From: JBFMHD01 sp040752395 [NCBI: Candidatus Hydrogenedentota bacterium]
GTDB lineage: Bacteria; JBFMHD01
Direction of reading: 5' to 3'
Length of the DNA stretch: 11,530 nucleotides
Assembly (NCBI GenBank): GCA_040752395.1
Contig: JBFMHD010000077.1
Location: 1 to 11,530 of the forward strand
Each line of letters begins with the position of its first letter. Positions within the stretch are counted from its first letter, which is position 1. Below the pieces are notes generated by a model. It worked only from the letters and a program-made list of their open reading frames with translations. It searched no databases and was not told where the DNA came from. A program made the position numbers and the translations under genes. This document shows positions 98 through 11,530 of this stretch, one piece after another.

Positions 98-264
98 ATG
101 AAAAACTAAAGATGATATGAAAAGAGTCGTGAGTCGCAAGTCGTGAGTCAAAACAGGACTCGAGACTCAAGACTCAAGACTTTTCAGCAGGCTTTTGGCT
201 TTTGTCTCCAGCCGGCTGTAGTCCGTAGGCTGTAGCCCGAATTATTAGGGTTACAGCGTTTTTC
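98..264 (+). repeat. Complex heptad-structured repeat, copy A
   Basis: This ~167-bp element matches 11214-11380 on the opposite strand with about six mismatches by eye. It is built of 7-nt units: GAGTCGT, GAGTCGC, AAGTCGT, GAGTCAA (124-151), a spacer AACAG, then the inverted units GACTCGA, GACTCAA, GACTCAA, GAC (157-180). These are followed by GGCTTTT twice (190-203), GTCTCCA, and GGCTGTA, GTCCGTA, GGCTGTA (214-234). The two inverted arrays can fold into a hairpin of 5-bp helices separated by 2-nt mismatches. The tail (about 238-264) is the part shared with the 5' leaders of other genes in the window. Here it is followed by GAAGGGAG rather than CAGAGGAG and lies about 30 bp before the ComEC-like start codon. 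Similar 7-nt repeats (STRRs) are known in cyanobacteria; no relationship is implied. Confidence 0.9.
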
Positions 265-293
265 GAAGGGAGTAAAAACGAGGGTTCGGGTTT

Positions 294-1292
294 ATGGTTG
301 AAGAAGATAGATTTGCCCGATTTAGAGCTAAACAGGAAAAAAAACAAAGAAAATCTATATTCAGTTTAGAAAATGTTATCACTTATATATTTTTACTAAT
401 CGCTATAGGTATCTGGTTTTTCGCGTTTCCTTTAATAGTTGATAAAATAAAGCCTGATTTTCAAAATATTTCTGCGAATGCGAGTTTCAATGATAATATT
501 ATGGAGATAATAATGTTTGATGTGGGCCAGGGGGACGCTTTCTTGATTAAAACTCCATCTGGTAAATTCGCCTTAATTGACGGCGGAAGTGGTAAAACTA
601 CGTTAGATAATTATAAAGGCAGTGATGCTGGTAATAGAGTTATTTTACCCTATCTTAATAATAAGGCTGTTACATCACTTGATTGGGTCGTAATGACACA
701 TCCTGATTTTGATCACTGCGGCGGCTTGATTGATGTTCTTAACAATATAAAAGTTAAAGAATTTATTGACCCCTGCATACAAGACCCTTCACCTTTTTAT
801 GAAGAATTATTAACTATTATTAAAGAGAAGAACATATCTTATATAAAGGCAAGGGAAGGCGACATTCTTGCCTGGGACCCATCAATTGTGGTTCAGGTTT
901 TAAGTGCAGAACATCCACTTGAGATGGGTAATAATAATAGCTCTATTGTTTTAAGAATAGCCTTTGGTAAAATAAGTTGTTTATTTCCAGGAGATGCAGA
1001 ATACGAGATTGAAAAAGAACTATTAACAAAGTACGGTGACCAGCTTAAATCGCAAATATTAAAAGTTGGTCATCACGGCTCAAAAAGTTCGTCGTCTTTG
1101 TCTTTTATAAGAACCGTCCGGCCTGAAATAGCTCTTATTTCTGTAGGGGTTAATAATAACTACGGTCATCCTGATGAACAGGTTTTATATAGACTAAAGA
1201 ATATTAAATCTAAAATTTATCGAACCGACATTGATGGAACTGTTGTAATAAAAATTAATGGTGAAAAATATAATGTAACAACTGAAAAATAA
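294..1292 (+). CDS. ComEC/Rec2-type MBL-fold metallohydrolase with N-terminal membrane anchor
   Basis: This is a 332-aa protein with a metallo-beta-lactamase fold like the C-terminal domain of the competence protein ComEC. It lacks the multi-helix ComEC channel domain, so it is not a full DNA-uptake protein. A basic N-terminus (residues 1-22) precedes one membrane helix (about 28-50), and the hydrolase domain would then lie outside the cytoplasm. The domain begins MFDVGQGDAF (74-83). It holds the metal-binding motif THPDFDHCGG (135-144), FPGDAE (231-236), GHHGSKSSSS (259-268) and a late GHP (291-293). Stand-alone members of this family are usually annotated as MBL-fold hydrolases, and their substrate (nucleic acid or other phosphodiester) is generally unknown. 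The start is the first ATG after repeat copy A; the GAGGG/GAAGGGAG purine runs upstream are imperfect ribosome-binding sites. It converges with the next gene, stop codons 4 nt apart. The family call is firm, the substrate unknown. Confidence 0.9.
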   Translation: MVEEDRFARFRAKQEKKQRKSIFSLENVITYIFLLIAIGIWFFAFPLIVDKIKPDFQNISANASFNDNIMEIIMFDVGQGDAFLIKTPSGKFALIDGGSGKTTLDNYKGSDAGNRVILPYLNNKAVTSLDWVVMTHPDFDHCGGLIDVLNNIKVKEFIDPCIQDPSPFYEELLTIIKEKNISYIKAREGDILAWDPSIVVQVLSAEHPLEMGNNNSSIVLRIAFGKISCLFPGDAEYEIEKELLTKYGDQLKSQILKVGHHGSKSSSSLSFIRTVRPEIALISVGVNNNYGHPDEQVLYRLKNIKSKIYRTDIDGTVVIKINGEKYNVTTEK

Positions 1293-1296
1293 TAAT

Positions 1297-1524
1297 TTAC
1301 TCTTTTTTCTCTTCTTTTTTACCGATACTTTCCACAAGATAGGTAAGATTATACAAGAGTATCATATTGCCAAATACAATATATATTGTAGCAATACTTG
1401 AACACATTATAATCATATTTGTTGGTAGACCATAGTTCATCAGAATAATTAATCCTAAAGTAACAAATGTAGCCATTGCTATCGCAATCACCACATATAT
1501 TCTAAGCTTTTCTATACCCATCAT
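1297..1524 (-). CDS. Small two-helix membrane protein, function unknown
   Basis: This 75-aa protein has two clear hydrophobic helices (about residues 8-29 and 36-60), with a short loop containing YGLPTN between them, and a highly charged tail ending GKKEEKKE. Both termini probably face the cytoplasm. I do not recognise the family. It is supported as a gene by a strong Shine-Dalgarno, AGGAGG, nine bases before the start; two ATG codons lie in tandem and either could be used. The Shine-Dalgarno is the end of a repeat-derived leader (1534-1566) that also precedes the pyrophosphatase and cupin genes. It converges with the ComEC-like gene and has no visible functional partner. Confidence 0.7.
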   Translation of the reverse strand: MMGIEKLRIYVVIAIAMATFVTLGLIILMNYGLPTNMIIMCSSIATIYIVFGNMILLYNLTYLVESIGKKEEKKE

Positions 1525-1533
1525 AAAACTATA

Positions 1534-1566
1534 CCTCCTCTGAAAAACTTTGTAACTATAATAATA
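1534..1566 (-). repeat. Repeat leader, copy B (tail only), with RBS
   Basis: On the minus strand this reads ATTATTATAGTTACAAAG, then TTTTTCAGAGGAGG. It matches the tail of repeat copies A, C and D with a few changes. It ends in the ribosome-binding site of the 75-aa membrane protein. The TATTAT/TATTAG box lies about 33 nt upstream of the ATG here, close to the 30-32 nt seen in copies C and D. Confidence 0.75.
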
Positions 1567-1572
1567 TCAAGT

Positions 1573-1592
1573 AGAAGCAAGAAGCAAGATAA
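1573..1592 (+). repeat. AGAAGCA heptad array
   Basis: AGAAGCA occurs twice in exact tandem, followed by AGATAA. The same AGAAGCAAGATAA string occurs at 9032-9043 and, on the minus strand, at 6815-6827. In all three places a TGTAG-hairpin follows within about 10-35 nt on the same strand. Confidence 0.7.
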
Positions 1593-1616
1593 ACAAACAT
1601 CTGGTTTTTCATATAT

Positions 1617-1656
1617 TGTGTAGAGCGGAAACCGCGCTCATGTCGGCTCCTCTAAA
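1617..1656 (+). repeat. TGTAG-hairpin element, copy 1
   Basis: TGTGTAGAGCGG, AAA, CCGCGCTCATG forms a short GC-rich hairpin (GCGG-AAA-CCGC, or GAGCG with CGCTC) in otherwise AT-rich DNA. It is followed by GGCTCCTCTAAAA, resembling CTCCTCTGAAAAA after the copy at 11441-11476. The rest of the 1525-1785 spacer is AT-rich; I see only an AATTTTTAAAAATT palindrome (1759-1772) just past the pyrophosphatase stop and no gene. Confidence 0.75.
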
Positions 1657-1785: not shown

Positions 1786-4164
1786 TCAGTTTTCTTTTGG
1801 TATTCTCATTTTATAAAAAGAACGCCATACAAATATTAAAGAAATAATAAAGAGTACCACTCCAATAACAGTTGTATGAATTTTCTGCATTTTTATAGCG
1901 ATCTCAACAGCAAGCATCCCAAAAAGAGTTGAAAATTTGATTATCGGGTTCAAAGAAACCGCAGTAGTATCTTTGAATGGATCACCCACAGTATCACCGA
2001 TAACAGTAGCTGCATGAAGCGGTGTACCTTTTTCTCCTAAATCAACCTCGATTATCTTTTTTGCGTTATCCCACGACCCACCAGTATTTGCCATATAAAT
2101 CGCCTGAAATAAACCAAAAACCGCGATTGCGATCAGATAAGCTACAAAGAAATACGGATTAAAAAAAGCGAACGCAAGAGTTACAGTCATAAGAGCAATA
2201 AAAATATTCCACATACCGGTCTGAGCATATTGTGTGCATATCCTGACCACTGTTTTTGTATCTTCTATATCAGCTTCTTTTTTCTCTAAATTCATATTCT
2301 TTTTAATAAATGCAACTGCGCGATAGGCACCTGTTGCAACTGCCTGGATTGACGCGCCGCTGAACCAGTATATTACAGCACCGCCACAAATAAACCCTAA
2401 TAATACCAGCGGTGCGGTCAAATTAAGCATTTCTTTTATCTGCTCACCAAGTAATAAAATTATTGAAAAAATCATTGTCGTAGCACCAGCTACCGCAGTA
2501 CCAATTAAAACGGGTTTTGCAGTTGCTTTGAATGTATTGCCAGCTGAATCATTTGCCTCAAGATAATGTTTCCCAAGAGTGAAATCAGGCTCAAAACCAA
2601 AATCCCTTTTTATCTCTTCCTTGATCCCGACAATCTTCTCAGTCTGGGCAAGTTCAAAGACTGATTGTGCATTATCAGTCACAGGACCATAACTATCAAC
2701 CGCAATGTTAACAGGTCCCATACAGAGAAAACCATAAGCTACAAGACCAAATGCAAATATCGAGGCATAAGGCATAATATTCTGTAACCCGCCAAGACTT
2801 ACAAAATATGCACCTGTCATAAGTCCGACTATTAGAATCCCTTTCCAGAATGCGCTGAAATATCCTGATACCATACCAGAAAGAATTGTGAGTGATGCGC
2901 CACCTTCCCTGGTCGCTGTAACTATCTCCTTGACATGTTTTGATTTCGAACTCGTGAATATCTTTGTAAATTCAGGGATTAAAACAGCAGCCAGAGTACC
3001 ACAGCTGATAATCAACGCAAGCTGCCACCATAATGAAGTATCTGATAAATCACCAACAAGCATATAACTCATACCAAAAGAAGTGCTTATGCAAAGAATC
3101 GCCGCGATCCATATCAATCTTATCAGTGGTTCCTCAAAATCAAATTCTTTTAAGCCTTTATATTTTCGTTCAGAAATAAATTGGTTTACAAAATAAGCTA
3201 TACCTGAGAAAAAATCCATCAAGAACCTCATTGCAAAAATCCAGACAATTAGTTTGGCCTGGATATGCGGATCAGAAACAGCAAGCGTGATAAACGAGAT
3301 TAACGCTACACCTGTAACACCATAGGTCTCAAACCCATCTGCAGTAGGTCCTACGCTATCACCTGCGTTATCACCTGTGCAATCAGCGATAACACCGGGG
3401 TTACGCGGGTCATCTTCTTTAACCTTGAACACAATCTTCATAAGGTCAGAACCTATATCAGCGATTTTAGTAAAGATTCCGCCTGCGATACGTAATGCTG
3501 AAGCACCTAATGATTCACCGATTGCAAACCCTAAAAAACAGAAACCTACAATATCGCGCGGCACAAAAAGTAATATTATAACCATCATTACAAGCTCAAG
3601 TGATATCAGAAACAAACCTACACTCATACCAGCACGTAGCGGTATGTTTACAACATCCCAGGGGATTCCGCGGAGCGAAGCAAATGCTGTTCTTGCATTC
3701 GCATAAGTATTTACACGTATACCATACCATGCCACACTATACGAACCACCCATACCTATGACTGTAAATAATAAAACTAATAAAATAACAGGGATACCAC
3801 GATCCTGTAAAAAGAAAAGATAATAGCTTATACAACAAGCGATAAACGCAAACAACATCAGTAAAAATTTTCCCTGCTGAATAAGATAAGTTCTACAGGT
3901 CTGATAAATAGTTTCTGCTATATTAAGCATAGAGTTATGTACGGGTAACTTTTTTATTTTGTTACGCAGTGTTAAACTGAATCCGCAGGTGCCAGCAATA
4001 ATTATCGCACCATAAAATAGGAGATGCCAGGCATCTATACCACCGAATTTCGCAAATGAGCCCTCCCTTAAATCCGGAATCGCTAAATCTGCTTCACTTG
4101 CAAATAATAAAGGATTACAAAAGAATATACTCAACAATAATAAAACAAATCTTAATAACCACAT
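1786..4164 (-). CDS. hppA: Membrane-bound proton-translocating pyrophosphatase
   Basis: This 792-aa integral membrane enzyme hydrolyses pyrophosphate and pumps cations out of the cytoplasm. The pyrophosphate-site motifs are all present: EDDPRNP (250-256), DNAGDSVGPTADGFETYG (265-282), GPVTDNAQ (493-500), GGSWDNAKK (695-703) and GDTVGDPFKDTT (723-734). The acidic and lysine ligands are intact. Lysine in GNTFK (542-546), where potassium-dependent enzymes have alanine, suggests a potassium-independent, hence probably proton-pumping, type. FETYGVT and SLNPIIK also resemble that subgroup. Some usually conserved positions differ (TADGFET for the usual ADLFE, SVGPT for the usual AGMGA), so it is a divergent member. 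Residues 1-23 look like a signal peptide. It is somewhat longer than most bacterial homologues. The start has a Shine-Dalgarno (GAGGAG) seven to nine bases upstream, contributed by repeat copy C. It follows livF on the same strand but has its own leader, so it is probably transcribed separately. Confidence 0.95.
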   Translation of the reverse strand: MWLLRFVLLLLSIFFCNPLLFASEADLAIPDLREGSFAKFGGIDAWHLLFYGAIIIAGTCGFSLTLRNKIKKLPVHNSMLNIAETIYQTCRTYLIQQGKFLLMLFAFIACCISYYLFFLQDRGIPVILLVLLFTVIGMGGSYSVAWYGIRVNTYANARTAFASLRGIPWDVVNIPLRAGMSVGLFLISLELVMMVIILLFVPRDIVGFCFLGFAIGESLGASALRIAGGIFTKIADIGSDLMKIVFKVKEDDPRNPGVIADCTGDNAGDSVGPTADGFETYGVTGVALISFITLAVSDPHIQAKLIVWIFAMRFLMDFFSGIAYFVNQFISERKYKGLKEFDFEEPLIRLIWIAAILCISTSFGMSYMLVGDLSDTSLWWQLALIISCGTLAAVLIPEFTKIFTSSKSKHVKEIVTATREGGASLTILSGMVSGYFSAFWKGILIVGLMTGAYFVSLGGLQNIMPYASIFAFGLVAYGFLCMGPVNIAVDSYGPVTDNAQSVFELAQTEKIVGIKEEIKRDFGFEPDFTLGKHYLEANDSAGNTFKATAKPVLIGTAVAGATTMIFSIILLLGEQIKEMLNLTAPLVLLGFICGGAVIYWFSGASIQAVATGAYRAVAFIKKNMNLEKKEADIEDTKTVVRICTQYAQTGMWNIFIALMTVTLAFAFFNPYFFVAYLIAIAVFGLFQAIYMANTGGSWDNAKKIIEVDLGEKGTPLHAATVIGDTVGDPFKDTTAVSLNPIIKFSTLFGMLAVEIAIKMQKIHTTVIGVVLFIISLIFVWRSFYKMRIPKEN

Positions 4165-4172
4165 TGTCTCTC

Positions 4173-4243
4173 TCCTCTGAAAAACGCTGTAATTCTAATA
4201 ATTCGGGCTACAGGCTACGGCTGGCTGGAGTCCGTGGCTTGCT
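4173..4243 (-). repeat. Repeat leader, copy C, with RBS of hppA
   Basis: Read on the minus strand, this is a shortened copy of the complex repeat. It keeps the GCCGTAGCCTGTAGCCCG region and the tail ending TTTTTCAGAGGAG, but has lost the GAGTC/GACTC hairpin arrays. It ends eight bases before the pyrophosphatase start and provides its Shine-Dalgarno. A TATTAG box 30 nt before the ATG could be a -10 element, but I see no good -35, so a promoter is only a guess. The flanking 4244-4295 is AT-rich with nothing else recognisable. Confidence 0.8.
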
Positions 4244-4295: not shown

Positions 4296-5003
4296 CTATT
4301 CTTCACCAAGATATGATTTCTTTACTAAATCTGAGTTAAGTAGGTTCTTTGAAGTATCATGGAGTATTATATTACCTGTCTCTATTACATAACCTCGGTT
4401 TGCAAGATGTAGCGCAGCATAAGCATTCTGTTCTACAAGTAAGATGGAGACCCCTCGGCTGTTAATAGTCTTAATAATCTCAAAAATTTTCTCTATTATT
4501 ATCGGTGCTAACCCAAGCGATGGTTCATCAAGCATAAGTAGTCTCGGCTCATTCATCAATGCTCTTCCTATCGCAAGCATCTGCTGCTCACCACCTGATA
4601 AAGTCCCGCCTAATTGTTTTCTCCTTTCATATAAAATAGGGAATAGTGAATATACATTCTCTAAATATTCCTTTACTTTTGTTTTATCTCTGACAAGATA
4701 AGCACCCATTTTAAGGTTCTCCAAAACAGTTACTCTCGGAAAGATTCTCCTTCCTTCAGGAACATGTGAGATACCGACTCTGACCCGTTTATCAGCACTA
4801 TACGTGTTTATATTCATATCTTGAAATAAAATATTACCCTGCGTATTATTAATTATTCCTGATATAGTTAATAAAGTAGTGGTTTTCCCGGCACCATTTA
4901 CACCTATTAAAGTTACTATCTCGCCAGCATTAACCTCTATATTTAGATTCTTTATAACCGGCGTATGATCGTATCCTGCACTGACGTTTATAAGTTTTAA
5001 CAT
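4296..5003 (-). CDS. livF: Branched-chain amino-acid-type ABC transporter, ATPase LivF
   Basis: This 235-aa protein is the usual LivF length and is one of two cytoplasmic ATPases that power the uptake system encoded upstream. Walker A GVNGAGKTT is at 34-42, signature LSGGEQQ at 135-141 and Walker B LLMLDEPSLGL at 155-165. LVEQNA at 189-194, with Gln where many ABC ATPases have the switch His, is normal for LivF. HVPEGRRIFPRVTVLENL (80-97) is also typical. The start lies seven bases after the livG stop, whose TAA overlaps an AAGG ribosome-binding site, so the genes are probably translationally coupled. It is the last gene of the operon, and I see no clear terminator after it. Confidence 0.95.
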   Translation of the reverse strand: MLKLINVSAGYDHTPVIKNLNIEVNAGEIVTLIGVNGAGKTTTLLTISGIINNTQGNILFQDMNINTYSADKRVRVGISHVPEGRRIFPRVTVLENLKMGAYLVRDKTKVKEYLENVYSLFPILYERRKQLGGTLSGGEQQMLAIGRALMNEPRLLMLDEPSLGLAPIIIEKIFEIIKTINSRGVSILLVEQNAYAALHLANRGYVIETGNIILHDTSKNLLNSDLVKKSYLGEE

Positions 5004-6749: not shown

Positions 6750-6827
6750 TTAATCTTGTTTCTTACTCCTTGCTTCGGGCAGACACATAGGTCTGCCACT
6801 ACATTGGTTTTCAGTTATCTTGCTTCT
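6750..6827 (-). repeat. TGTAG-hairpin element, copy 2, between livH and livM
   Basis: Read on the minus strand: AAGTAAGAAGCAAGATAAC, TGAAAACC, then TGTAGT and the hairpin GGCAGAC-CTATGT-GTCTGCC (stem arms 6778-6784 and 6791-6797, perfect over 7 bp). It ends in a run resembling AGCAAGGAGTAAGAAACAAG. The leader begins at the livH stop codon. Inside the operon it could act on the mRNA (stability or partial attenuation), but it lacks a T-run and is not a classical terminator. Confidence 0.8.
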
Positions 6828-7687
6828 TACTTACCACCCATAATCCCTGATGGTTTAATAAGAAGTATTATTATCAAGATAGCAAAAGCTATCGCGTCTT
6901 TATAACCCGATGAAATATATGCGCTGCCTAAGCTTTCAAGGACTCCAAGTAAAACACCGCCAAGCATCGCGCCTGGAATATTACCTATACCTCCAAGCAC
7001 AGCCGCAGTGAATGCTTTTATACCTGCAACATATCCCATAGTTGGGTAAATGACACCATAATACATTCCTATCAAAATACCAGCAACAGCTGCCAGACTC
7101 GAGCCTATCGCAAAAGTCGTTGAGATAATTCTGTCAATATTTATACCCATTAAAGAAGCAACTATTTTATCCTGAGCAGTACAACGTATCGCACAACCAA
7201 GTTTAGTATACTTTACAAATATATGGAGCACTAACATCAAAATCATGGAGACTAAAAGTATAAAGACCTGAATATAAGTTATTTTTACATCTTCAAAAGA
7301 GATATATCTATCTTTTAAAAAATCAGGTAACGAAAAAGCATGCATACGGGTACCCCAGATAAGCATCGCAACATTCTGTAACGCTATCGAAACACCGATC
7401 GCTGAGATAAGCGGTGCGAGACGCGATGATTTCCGTAATGGTTTATAAGCTACTTTCTCTATTACTATCCCTAAAATAGCAGTAAAAAGAATAGAAAGTA
7501 AAGATGCGGGTAATAATGGCAAATGCCAACTACTTATAAAAAAAAATGTAATAAAAGCACCCATCATCATAATCTCGCCATGAGCAAAATTAATCAGCTC
7601 CAGGATGCCATATACCATTGTATACCCAAGTGCGATTAAAGCGTAAACACTCCCTAATGTTAAACCATTAATGATTTGCTGACACAT
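6827..7687 (-). CDS. livH: Branched-chain amino-acid-type ABC transporter, permease LivH
   Basis: This 286-aa polytopic membrane protein is the partner permease of LivM. It begins with the family's hallmark N-terminus: NGLTLGSVYALIALGYTMVY (7-26), then GILELINFAHGE (27-38). The cytoplasmic loop IRCTAQDKIVASLMGIN (about 166-183) and the C-terminal GGIGNIPGAMLGG (about 231-243) are also diagnostic. The length is standard. The start is five bases after the binding-protein stop codon with no clear Shine-Dalgarno, which suggests translational coupling. It ends GGK-stop exactly where the downstream hairpin element begins. Confidence 0.95.
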   Translation of the reverse strand: MCQQIINGLTLGSVYALIALGYTMVYGILELINFAHGEIMMMGAFITFFFISSWHLPLLPASLLSILFTAILGIVIEKVAYKPLRKSSRLAPLISAIGVSIALQNVAMLIWGTRMHAFSLPDFLKDRYISFEDVKITYIQVFILLVSMILMLVLHIFVKYTKLGCAIRCTAQDKIVASLMGINIDRIISTTFAIGSSLAAVAGILIGMYYGVIYPTMGYVAGIKAFTAAVLGGIGNIPGAMLGGVLLGVLESLGSAYISSGYKDAIAFAILIIILLIKPSGIMGGK

Positions 7688-8955: not shown

Positions 8956-9258
8956 ATGAATAACAGTTTAACAGATAATATAGTAATCCCTCAGCTACAG
9001 GTGGAATTTAAAAGCAAGATGCAAGAGGCAAGAAGCAAGATAACGGAAAACTGTTGTAGTAGCGGATTTATCCGCCCAGAAATTCCACTGAAGACAGGGG
9101 GGATACATAATATAAGAAAATGTGTTGGTATAAAAAAAGATAATTCATTATATCTTTTGACCGAACTAAATGATTTTATCAAAAAAAATCAGGTTTCAAA
9201 TAAATTAAGGAAAGATGAACGCATACGAAGAGTTGTTGGTTCTACTTGCAAAAAATAA
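8956..9258 (+). CDS. Doubtful small ORF, 100 aa, carrying a repeat insertion
   Basis: I do not recognise this protein and am unsure it is real. The ATG has no Shine-Dalgarno. The first half (about residues 19-46) is encoded by a dispersed TGTAG-hairpin element with its flanking inverted repeats. The second half (about 52-85) is charged and protein-like, for example NSLYLLTELNDFIKKNQ, and could be the remnant of an older gene. The frame overlaps the following nucleotidyltransferase by 44 nt. A small partner gene in front of a nucleotidyltransferase would be reminiscent of toxin-antitoxin or MNT/HEPN pairs, but no antitoxin domain is visible. It may equally be a chance open frame. Confidence 0.25.
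   Translation: MNNSLTDNIVIPQLQVEFKSKMQEARSKITENCCSSGFIRPEIPLKTGGIHNIRKCVGIKKDNSLYLLTELNDFIKKNQVSNKLRKDERIRRVVGSTCKK
9001..9088 (+). repeat. TGTAG-hairpin element, copy 3, flanked by 9-bp inverted repeats
   Basis: GTGGAATTT (9001-9009) and AAATTCCAC (9080-9088) are perfect inverted repeats. Between them lie four tandem heptads (AGCAAGA, TGCAAGA, GGCAAGA, AGCAAGA; 9013-9040), then TAACGGAAAAC, TGTAGT and a hairpin GCGGAT-T-TATCCGCC (9062-9075). The leader matches copy 2 between livH and livM closely, but the hairpin arms are different. The terminal inverted repeats resemble those of a miniature transposable element, although there is no obvious target duplication. Confidence 0.8.
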
Positions 9259-9679: not shown

Positions 9680-10429
9680 TTAATAACCATAGATTAATCT
9701 ATCACCCAGTTTTTTAGGTAACCCAGCATCTATAATCTTTTCTCTTGTTTTGTTAAAATCATACTCTGTTCTGATCAGCCTAACCTCCCTTTTGTTTTCA
9801 TCAAAAATACAAAAAGCTGCCCTGTTATCTCTGTCTCTTGGTTGACCCACGCTCCCAACATTCACAATAGCACGTTCATTCTCTTTTAAGGCGATGATAA
9901 TGCCTTTATTAAAATTCTCTTCTAAAGTTATAGTTCCCTCCTCTTTATTAAAAATCCACATACATGGTCTATGTGAATGACCTATAAAACAGAACTGTTC
10001 TTTGAAACTTAAAAACTTATAATAGATACTCTGAATTGAAGTATATCCGGGTATCAGATATTCTAAATATGAATCAGGCGGTGCTCCGTGAACAAACAAA
10101 CTATCGTAAATCGAGATACTATTGGGTAGACTTTTTATAAACTCTTTTTGGATATAAGACAAAATTTTCAAAGAAAAAAGAGCACCCTCTTTAGCAAGCG
10201 GATTCACATCAGGATCATCTCTTAAATACTCATCAATAACCATCATCTCATGATTCCCCATAACATAATCACCGGGTTTAATAATCCCATTTACTCTTTC
10301 AAGACATATCCCTGGATCGGCCCCATATCCAACCACATCACCCAATATTATAATTCTATCCTCATGAACTATTTTTAATACAGCTTCAAGTGCCTCAATA
10401 TTAGAATGAATGTCTGAAAGTATTATCAT
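9680..10429 (-). CDS. Calcineurin-like metallophosphoesterase (YfcE/MJ0936-like)
   Basis: This is a 249-aa cytosolic two-metal phosphoesterase. Numbered from the chosen start, the motifs are LSDIHSN (4-10), LGDVVGYG (29-36), MGNHE (57-61), VHG (113-115) and GHSHRP (150-155), followed by NVGSVGQPRDRDNRAAF (190-206). All the expected metal ligands are present. Relatives hydrolyse phosphodiesters or phosphomonoesters, and the natural substrate is not predictable. The frame remains open for a further 39 codons to 10546, but family members begin at this MIILSDIHSN and the extension overlaps a promoter and an inverted repeat, so I chose the internal ATG. No Shine-Dalgarno precedes it. The promoter at 10436-10464 would start the mRNA at or next to the ATG. 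Confidence 0.92.
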   Translation of the reverse strand: MIILSDIHSNIEALEAVLKIVHEDRIIILGDVVGYGADPGICLERVNGIIKPGDYVMGNHEMMVIDEYLRDDPDVNPLAKEGALFSLKILSYIQKEFIKSLPNSISIYDSLFVHGAPPDSYLEYLIPGYTSIQSIYYKFLSFKEQFCFIGHSHRPCMWIFNKEEGTITLEENFNKGIIIALKENERAIVNVGSVGQPRDRDNRAAFCIFDENKREVRLIRTEYDFNKTREKIIDAGLPKKLGDRLIYGY

Positions 10430-10435
10430 AAGCAC

Positions 10436-10464
10436 ACTATAATAATTTTTTTGTATTAAGACAA
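10436..10464 (-). promoter_or_regulatory. Predicted promoter, possibly giving a leaderless mRNA
   Basis: On the minus strand TTGTCT (10459-10464), a 17-bp spacer and TATAGT (10436-10441) form a fair sigma-70-type promoter. The phosphoesterase ATG begins six bases after the -10 hexamer, so transcription would begin at the start codon itself. This fits the absence of a Shine-Dalgarno. Confidence 0.5.
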
Positions 10465-10526: not shown

Positions 10527-10703
10527 AATAAATATAAATCATTCACGGAGGAATGAAGTATGAAGGCTACCTGAAATAAATAATAAAGGTAAAAATTTAA
10601 TATCTAAATTATTCTGATGTAATCGGTAATCATAGAACTAATTATTTTTCATCATAATACAATTTACCGATACTATCAGTTTATATAAATTCTTTATCCC
10701 TAT

Positions 10704-10927: not shown

Positions 10928-11197
10928 TCACCCAAACCTATAATATTTCTTTATCGGTTTTTTAACATCCCATTCGCAGGAAAGCCCGCTTTCAAAAGTA
11001 ACAAGATCACCAGCTTTTATACTATAATCACCCTCATCTGTTTTTACAGTCACTTCACCCTCAATAATATAACAGGTCTCTCTATCGCTATACTCCCATG
11101 GAAACTTGCTAATTCCACAACTCCATACCCCCCAGGTATTTAATCCTAATTTATCTTTTTCTTCTTTTGTAGGTTGTGATATTTTGACTTTTGACAT
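10928..11197 (-). CDS. Small single-domain cupin (DUF861/Cupin_3-like)
   Basis: This 89-aa protein is one cupin beta-barrel. Recognisable parts are WGVWSCGISKFPWEYSDRE (22-40), CYIIEGEVTV (42-51), IKAGDLVTF (60-68) and GLSCEWDV (71-78), ending KKYYRFG. The E-x-CYI-x-EGEV and AGD-x-V-x-F-x-x-GL pattern is that of the (S)-ureidoglycine aminohydrolase/EutQ-like cupin group, whose short stand-alone members mostly lack an assigned function. The usual paired His ligands are not obvious, so metal binding is uncertain. GGAGG lies eight bases before the ATG and is supplied by repeat copy D. It has no functional neighbours; the gene ends five bases from the T-run of the opposing terminator. Confidence 0.88.
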   Translation of the reverse strand: MSKVKISQPTKEEKDKLGLNTWGVWSCGISKFPWEYSDRETCYIIEGEVTVKTDEGDYSIKAGDLVTFESGLSCEWDVKKPIKKYYRFG

Positions 11198-11205
11198 ACA
11201 CCATT

Positions 11206-11380
11206 CCTCCTCTGAAAAACGCTGTAACTCTAATAATTCGGGGTACAGGCTACGGACTACAGCCGGCTGGAGTCAAAAGCCAAAAGCCTGCTGAAAAGTC
11301 TTGAGTCTTGAGTCTCAAGTCCTGTTTTGACTCACGACTTGCGACTCGCGACTCTTTTCATATCATCTTTAGTTTTTCAT
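11206..11380 (-). repeat. Complex heptad-structured repeat, copy D, with RBS of the cupin gene
   Basis: On the minus strand this is nearly identical to copy A (98-264). It begins ATGAAAAACTAAAGATGATA, continues through the GAGTC array, the GACTC array, GGCTTTT twice and the GGCTGTA/GTCCGTA units, and ends in TTTTTCAGAGGAGG. I count about six substitutions over ~165 bp. The final AGGAGG is the cupin ribosome-binding site. Copies A and D point toward each other around the whole 11-kb interior. Confidence 0.9.
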
Positions 11381-11382
11381 CC

Positions 11383-11476
11383 TTTGTGTAGAGCGCAAAA
11401 ACCAAAAAACGCAATAACCCAATAACCCAAGAACCCAATAGTGTAGAGCGCAAACCGCGCTCATGACTCCTCTGAA
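11383..11476 (+). repeat. TGTAG-hairpin copies 4 (partial) and 5 with an octad array
   Basis: TTTGTGTAGAGCGC (11384-11397) is a truncated unit. It is followed by octads AATAACCC, AATAACCC, AAGAACCC (11413-11436), then a full unit GTGTAGAGCGC, AAACC, GCGCTCATG (11441-11465) with a perfect 6-bp stem, then CTCCTCTGAAAAA. The rest to 11530 is purine-rich and shows no gene; the purine-rich text near 11478-11520 loosely resembles the reverse complement of 35-75. Confidence 0.75.
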
Positions 11477-11530
11477 AAAGTAAGAAATGAGAAGTAGCAG
11501 TAAAATGGAGGATGCAGAAATAATCTTTTA

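What the first reader, a model, noticed from the sequence alone, without database searches (positions are those of the whole stretch)
1534..1566. Repeat tail supplies the ribosome-binding site of unrelated genes
The tail with TATTAG/TATTAT, TTACAGCG (or variant) and TTTTTCAGAGGAG precedes the 75-aa membrane protein, hppA (4173-4200) and the cupin (11206-11235) in sense orientation. In all three it ends in the Shine-Dalgarno, with the AT box 30-33 nt from the ATG. A related but altered tail precedes the ComEC-like gene. Either the repeat is a mobile 5' leader that brings translation (perhaps transcription) signals to genes, or it is a conserved leader targeted by a common regulator.
Basis: partly seen in the sequence, partly recalled or inferred. 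Interest (0 to 1): 0.65.

Follow-up and report, generated by a model that had tools for sequence, protein, structure and literature searches.

The report
Small mobile-like repeats abutting Shine-Dalgarno sites
Short repeated DNA elements with matching inverted ends sit directly in front of four unrelated genes in this bacterial fragment, three of them flush against the signal that ribosomes use to start translation, as if the element preferred to land there; with four copies in one fragment this remains a lead.

Summary
Four copies of the tail lie in the window (0.01 expected, 0 of 200 shuffles), all in sense upstream of different genes. In three (75-aa ORF, hppA, cupin) GAGGAG follows, 7-10 nt from the ATG, and homology stops there. 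These are the three strongest predicted Shine-Dalgarno sites of the window's 11 starts, hppA only just. The fourth (ComEC-like) has another purine block, too far from its ATG.

The tail is the end of a MITE-like element: TGAAAAAC...GTTTTTCA inverted ends bound copies of 71, 167 and 167 bp (one end 7 of 8); a fourth copy keeps one end. TGAAAAAC occurs six times in the window, always at these ends. By these borders the Shine-Dalgarno lies just outside the element. The "AT box" is the loop of a subterminal palindrome, perfect only in copy D, not a recognisable promoter box.

Best reading: an element that lands against the Shine-Dalgarno, and so forms the leader; a carried site is the close rival.

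The parts
1541..1611 (-). Element copy A, 71 bp, bounded by TGAAAAAC...GTTTTTCA (8 of 8); its tail is the leader of the 75-aa ORF
1535..1541 (-). AGAGGAG at the end of A (GAGGAG 1535-1540 lies outside the inverted end), 10 nt before the ATG
   Evidence: predicted pairing -13.3 kcal/mol, strongest of 11 starts
1297..1524 (-). 75-aa ORF, hydrophobic by eye; no Pfam or NCBIfam match
4178..4232 (-). Element copy B, only the gene-side part and end kept; leader of hppA
4172..4178 (-). AGAGGAG at the end of B, 7 nt before the ATG
   Evidence: -9.1 kcal/mol
1786..4164 (-). hppA, membrane pyrophosphatase
   Evidence: PF03030 E=9.6e-177; NF001950 1289.4 bits
11213..11379 (-). Element copy C, 167 bp, inverted ends 8 of 8; leader of the cupin gene
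11207..11213 (-). AGAGGAG at the end of C, 9 nt before the ATG
   Evidence: -12.0 kcal/mol
10928..11197 (-). Cupin (Cupin_3, EutQ-like)
   Evidence: PF05899 E=1.8e-23
99..265 (+). Element copy D, 167 bp, inverted ends 7 of 8; followed by AAGGGAG
294..1292 (+). ComEC-like metallo-hydrolase ORF; a nearer GAGGG precedes its ATG
   Evidence: PF00753 E=1.2e-15; TIGR00361 173.4 bits, below its cut-off 190.05
229..257 (+). Subterminal palindrome in D (10 of 10 pairs, 9-nt loop GAATTATTA), followed by GTTTTTC
122..184 (+). Second subterminal inverted repeat in D (GAGTC words)
   Evidence: DNA fold of 99-190, z -4.00
11467..11479 (-). Fourth exact TTTTTCAGAGGAG, next to hairpin repeat R1; no credible gene follows
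11441..11465 (+). Hairpin repeat R1, GTAG-tagged, upstream of copy C
1618..1642 (+). Second R1 copy, upstream of copy A, beside AGAGGAG 1647-1653

Best explanation
A, B, C and D are copies of a small MITE-like element with inverted ends TGAAAAAC...GTTTTTCA and, in D, hairpins near both ends. It lands next to the complement of a Shine-Dalgarno (CTCCTC directly before TGAAAAAC on the other strand), so its end lies flush before a gene start, in one orientation, with the ribosome-binding site intact. The element's end then forms the 5' leader of the gene. Shown: inverted ends, homology of copies, position and orientation, the purine block directly outside the end in all four copies (GAGGAG in three). 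Inferred: transposition, choice of target, transcription of the leader, use of the site by ribosomes. No promoter is evident; hppA and the 75-aa gene follow genes on the same strand, so read-through transcription is possible.
For: TGAAAAAC occurs 6 times in the window, 6 of 6 intergenic and at element ends (A two, C two, B one, D one; D's other end is 7 of 8), against 0.17 expected in resampled intergenic DNA, most in 1000 resamplings 2. Same length, 167 bp, for C and D. Right after the end: GAGGAG, GAGGAG, GAGGAG, AAGGGAG, then divergence. Tail 4 copies against 0.01. Placement near starts about 9e-5 by chance. Single-strand DNA hairpins near both ends of D, z -4.00 and -3.00, with 0 and 2 of 200 shuffles as stable. 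Predicted SD pairing -13.3, -12.0, -9.1 are the best 3 of 11 starts; livK is next with -8.7.
Against: Only four copies in one fragment; C and D are near-identical, so not independent. No target duplication is seen. The other flank is not random either: CACAA stands 4 nt outside the far end in A, C and D, so the true borders may be wider than the inverted ends. B lacks the far end. D's purine block is 21 nt from its ATG and is not its likely SD. AGAGGAG also adjoins the two R1 hairpins without a credible gene. No transposase was seen among the 8 ORFs scanned.
Confidence: 0.4

Rival explanations
1. Carried Shine-Dalgarno: GAGGAG belongs to the element's conserved border and is brought to each gene.
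For: TTTTTC plus AGAGGAG is identical in A, B and C, and spacers differ. No other of the 11 starts has AGAGGAG. AGAGGAG also adjoins the R1 hairpins without a credible gene, as cargo would.
Against: It lies outside the inverted ends. C and D, 95% identical in the body, differ just there (3 of 7).
Confidence: 0.3
2. Terminator or attenuator: the hairpin and T run end transcripts of the upstream gene or damp the downstream one.
For: D folds into a 10-bp stem followed by GUUUUUC: z -2.62, 3 of 200 shuffles as stable; 157-264 has z -3.90. The Paenibacillus match to the tail pattern (L002) folds as a strong terminator-like hairpin with a T run, z -8.40. A and B lie between genes on one strand.
Against: Hairpins of B and C are nearly gone (-2.8 kcal/mol each, against -18.4 in D), and A has only 7 of 10 pairs, which 3.5% of window positions reach. 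It does not explain the adjoining GAGGAG.
Confidence: 0.14
3. Regulated leader: the genes share a 5' leader read by a common regulator, or a U-run hairpin masks the SD.
For: In C the U run can pair with GAGGAA. The tail is kept in A although most of the rest differs.
Against: A, B, C leaders fold no better than shuffles (z 0.28, -0.80, -0.58). No Rfam match. C/D homology runs about 150 bp beyond the leader. Families of the genes show no common theme.
Confidence: 0.07
4. Mobile promoter: the AT box is a -10 element.
For: TATAGT, TAGAAT and TAGAGT can be read in A, B and C (by eye).
Against: In the consensus scan the box is not the -10 of any listed pair, and 47 hits in the window against 50.9 expected show no excess. 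Nearby listed pairs lie elsewhere: GTTACA/TATAGT in A, with its -10 after the SD, TAGATA/TATATT and TAGATA/TATTAT upstream of B, and TTGCGA/TATCAT inside C and D on the strand opposite to the gene. livK shows TTGACA-17-TAAGAT.
Confidence: 0.04

Closest known systems
MITEs, such as bcr1-bcr3 of Bacillus cereus, described as MITE-like and found in UTRs
   Same: Small, multi-copy repeats that become part of UTRs (passages of PMC3446304); inverted ends here as in MITEs
   Different: Flush against Shine-Dalgarno blocks in one orientation; no target duplication; the passages seen do not say this of bcr repeats
REPs (GTAG superfamily) and BIMEs
   Same: Mosaic intergenic palindromes; neighbouring hairpins R1, 9056-9075 and 6778-6802 have GTAG before the stem
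   Different: The tail palindrome pairs its GTAG; in the species analysed in PMC3733652 section 15 REPs between co-directed genes lie close to the 3' end of the upstream ORF and at varying distance from the next
IS200/IS605-type elements (features recalled)
   Same: Hairpins near the ends, short target beside one end, no target duplication
   Different: Those lack inverted ends; no transposase seen here

Membership tests
MITE | Terminal inverted repeats | tested here: met
   8 of 8 in A and C, 7 of 8 in D; B keeps one end (A's pair also)
MITE | Target-site duplication | tested here: not met
   No clear duplication at the two borders of A, C or D, read by eye from the flanks. 18-nt (89%) and 11-nt (91%) direct repeats flank wider composites at C and A, but they hold the recurring AGAGGAG block
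MITE | Several dispersed non-coding copies | tested here: met
   Four copies in 11.5 kb; genome-wide number not testable
GTAG-tagged REP | Unpaired GTAG at one end of the palindrome | tested here: not met
   GTAG is inside the stem of the tail palindrome; met for neighbouring hairpins
GTAG-tagged REP | High copy number in the genome | not testable with these tools
   No genome held
IS200/IS605-derived element | Hairpins near both ends | tested here: met
   D only: z -4.00 and -3.00 as single-stranded DNA
IS200/IS605-derived element | Absence of terminal inverted repeats (recalled) | tested here: not met
   8-bp inverted ends
IS200/IS605-derived element | Y1 transposase in the genome | tested here: inconclusive
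   None among the 8 window ORFs scanned with Pfam; four liv ORFs, short ORFs and the rest of the genome not scanned
Known RNA leader | Match to an Rfam family | tested here: not met
   0 matches at gathering score in the window
Sigma-70 promoter | -35/-10 pair using the AT box | tested here: not met
   The box is not the -10 of any listed pair

The most novel reading that the evidence does not exclude
A mobile element that homes on the complement of the Shine-Dalgarno, so that insertions land flush before gene starts, in one orientation, replacing the leader while leaving the ribosome-binding site intact.
Probability: 0.25. Interest if true: 0.7.

Novelty: new variant of a known kind. Interest (0 to 1): 0.45.

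Why it matters
If the element recognises Shine-Dalgarno DNA, it would have a built-in way to find gene starts without harming the coding sequence, and could reset the leaders of many genes. If instead it carries the site, it spreads translation signals. Either is directly testable once a genome of this organism is at hand.

Tried and rejected
Promoter reading of the AT box: not supported. Masked SD: folds no better than shuffles in A, B, C. The whole composite 11207-11480 folds only somewhat better than shuffles (z -1.68, 12 of 200 as stable). Known RNA family: none. tRNA: none. Integron attC layout was thought of and dropped because genes lie on both strands (no call).

Relatives of the repeat. 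Viral contigs patterns gave 0, 0, 2 and 0 stretches. The two: L019 shares TTACAGGGTTTTTCAGAGGAG but no AT box and reads as coding by eye; L020 shares only the pattern. Genome contigs gave three matches, taken as chance: L001 and L003 share little beyond the pattern, L002 is a terminator-like hairpin. Plasmids: no match to the window in near mode or to 90-293 in distant mode; phages: none for 90-293.

HppA was used to look for a related genome: viral contigs none confirmed; plasmids 20 records, all under 60% identity; one family search in three G-handle or chance-hit genomes gave 0 of 2 searched, one not held; protein searches in G-handle genomes 4 of 61, 55 of 289, 126 of 149 and 3 of 4. The listed matches include 12 at 61-65% in 10 genomes; the other listed ones are 28-38%, one fragment 50%. 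That list was cut. One locus (L021) was looked at and has other neighbours; I did not search these genomes for the tail. LivG against plasmids was uninformative (cut at 5000 records).

Literature: seven searches were answered. Four returned no paper. None of the listings named a repeat that carries or targets an SD, but the terms were narrow, so I make no claim that this is not in print. Papers: PMC3733652 (abstract, passages, section 15), PMC2817692 (passages), PMC3446304 (passages); others only as listings.

The passive-landing rival of the draft is now part of the best reading.

Full report
The sequence. The window is 11,530 bases, 35% GC. No whole genome is held for it. Genes: ComEC-like metallo-hydrolase (+), 75-aa ORF (-), hppA (-), a branched-chain amino acid transporter set livF-G-M-H-K (-), an ORF with a weak nucleotidyltransferase match below cut-off (+), a phosphoesterase (-) and a cupin (-). 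livF, G, M and H are named from their translations, not from a family search. For the phosphoesterase I used the ATG at 10429, not the GTG at 10546 that the ORF list gives.

Check of the observation. Four copies of the tail exist, all in sense ahead of an ORF. AGAGGAG follows TTTTTC in A, B and C, 10, 7 and 9 nt from the ATG. D reads GAAGGGAG, 21 nt from its ATG, and has a nearer GAGGG. A fourth exact TTTTTCAGAGGAG at 11467-11479 (minus) has no AT box and no credible gene. AGAGGAG occurs six times in the window, mean 0.87 in 300 shuffles and never five or more: three tails, two beside R1 hairpins, one inside the phosphoesterase gene. Placement figures were made after seeing the data.

The element. 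B keeps only the gene end. A is 71 bp, C and D are 167 bp each. TGAAAAAC occurs six times in the window, all at these ends; resampled intergenic DNA gives 0.17 on average and at most 2 in 1000. C and D are 95% identical over 175 bp, B shares 42 bp at 93% with D and 68 bp at 85% with C, A shares 38 bp at 87% with C and 31 bp at 87% with B. The 175 bp run about 9 nt past the far inverted end, and CACAA stands 4 nt outside it in A, C and D, so that border is not clean.

Structure. The AT box is the loop of CTGTAGCCC-GAATTATTA-GGGTTACAG: 10 of 10 pairs in D; 7 of 10 in B, C and A, while 3.5% of window positions reach 7. The D leader folds better than 197 of 200 shuffles; A, B, C do not stand out. 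As single-stranded DNA, D has hairpins near both ends (z -4.00 and -3.00). The full composite at C is only modestly structured (z -1.68).

The purine block. Just outside the gene end stand GAGGAG (A, B, C) and AAGGGAG (D), after which the copies diverge. It gives 75aa, cupin and hppA the three best predicted Shine-Dalgarno pairings of 11 starts (-13.3, -12.0, -9.1; livK -8.7, standard anti-SD assumed). Since C and D are alike in the body but differ in this block, and since it lies outside the inverted ends, I take it as more likely the landing site than cargo. The case for cargo is that the block is identical in A, B, C, is used by no other of the 11 starts, and adjoins R1 hairpins where no gene follows.

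The setting. Intergenic DNA here holds other palindromes. R1 occurs twice, with a part at 11386-11399. Perfect hairpins preceded by GTAG are at four intergenic places, two of them R1 copies (five hits, two overlapping; a sixth hit lies in a gene). GTAG ranks first of 256 tetranucleotides with 5, but AGTC and AAAA have 4 each, so this is weak.

Transcription. The AT box is not the -10 of any listed promoter pair. hppA and the 75-aa ORF lie 131 and 261 nt after genes on the same strand, so read-through is possible; a terminator role is possible in D.

Limits. One fragment, four copies, two of them near-identical. An exact-pattern scan of the 84,980-species collection found no relative, and the four viral-contig pattern scans none; looser relatives could have been missed.

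Noticed in passing
90-269 and 11209-11388: The window is bracketed by 180-bp inverted copies of the same repeat, 11 kb apart.
   Followed up: partly
6787-6828 and 9030-9071: Another intergenic repeat pair with GTAG-preceded hairpins, one copy upstream of livM.
   Followed up: partly
11461-11473 and 1638-1653: Both R1 hairpins are preceded on the minus strand by AGAGGAG, a short spacer and CATGAGCGCGG, so they look like SD-plus-ATG starts of tiny ORFs (31 and 10 codons).
   Followed up: partly
10429-10464: The phosphoesterase ATG lies 6 nt after a TATAGT box with TTGTCT 17 nt upstream, which may mean a leaderless mRNA.
   Followed up: no
1786-4164: HppA is of the NF001950 type (1289.4 bits); 12 matches at 61-65% identity in 10 genomes of one phylum stand out from listed matches of mostly 28-38%.
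   Followed up: partly
L002:2046-2068: The Paenibacillus match to the tail pattern is a strong terminator-like hairpin with loop GTTATTAG and a T run.
   Followed up: partly
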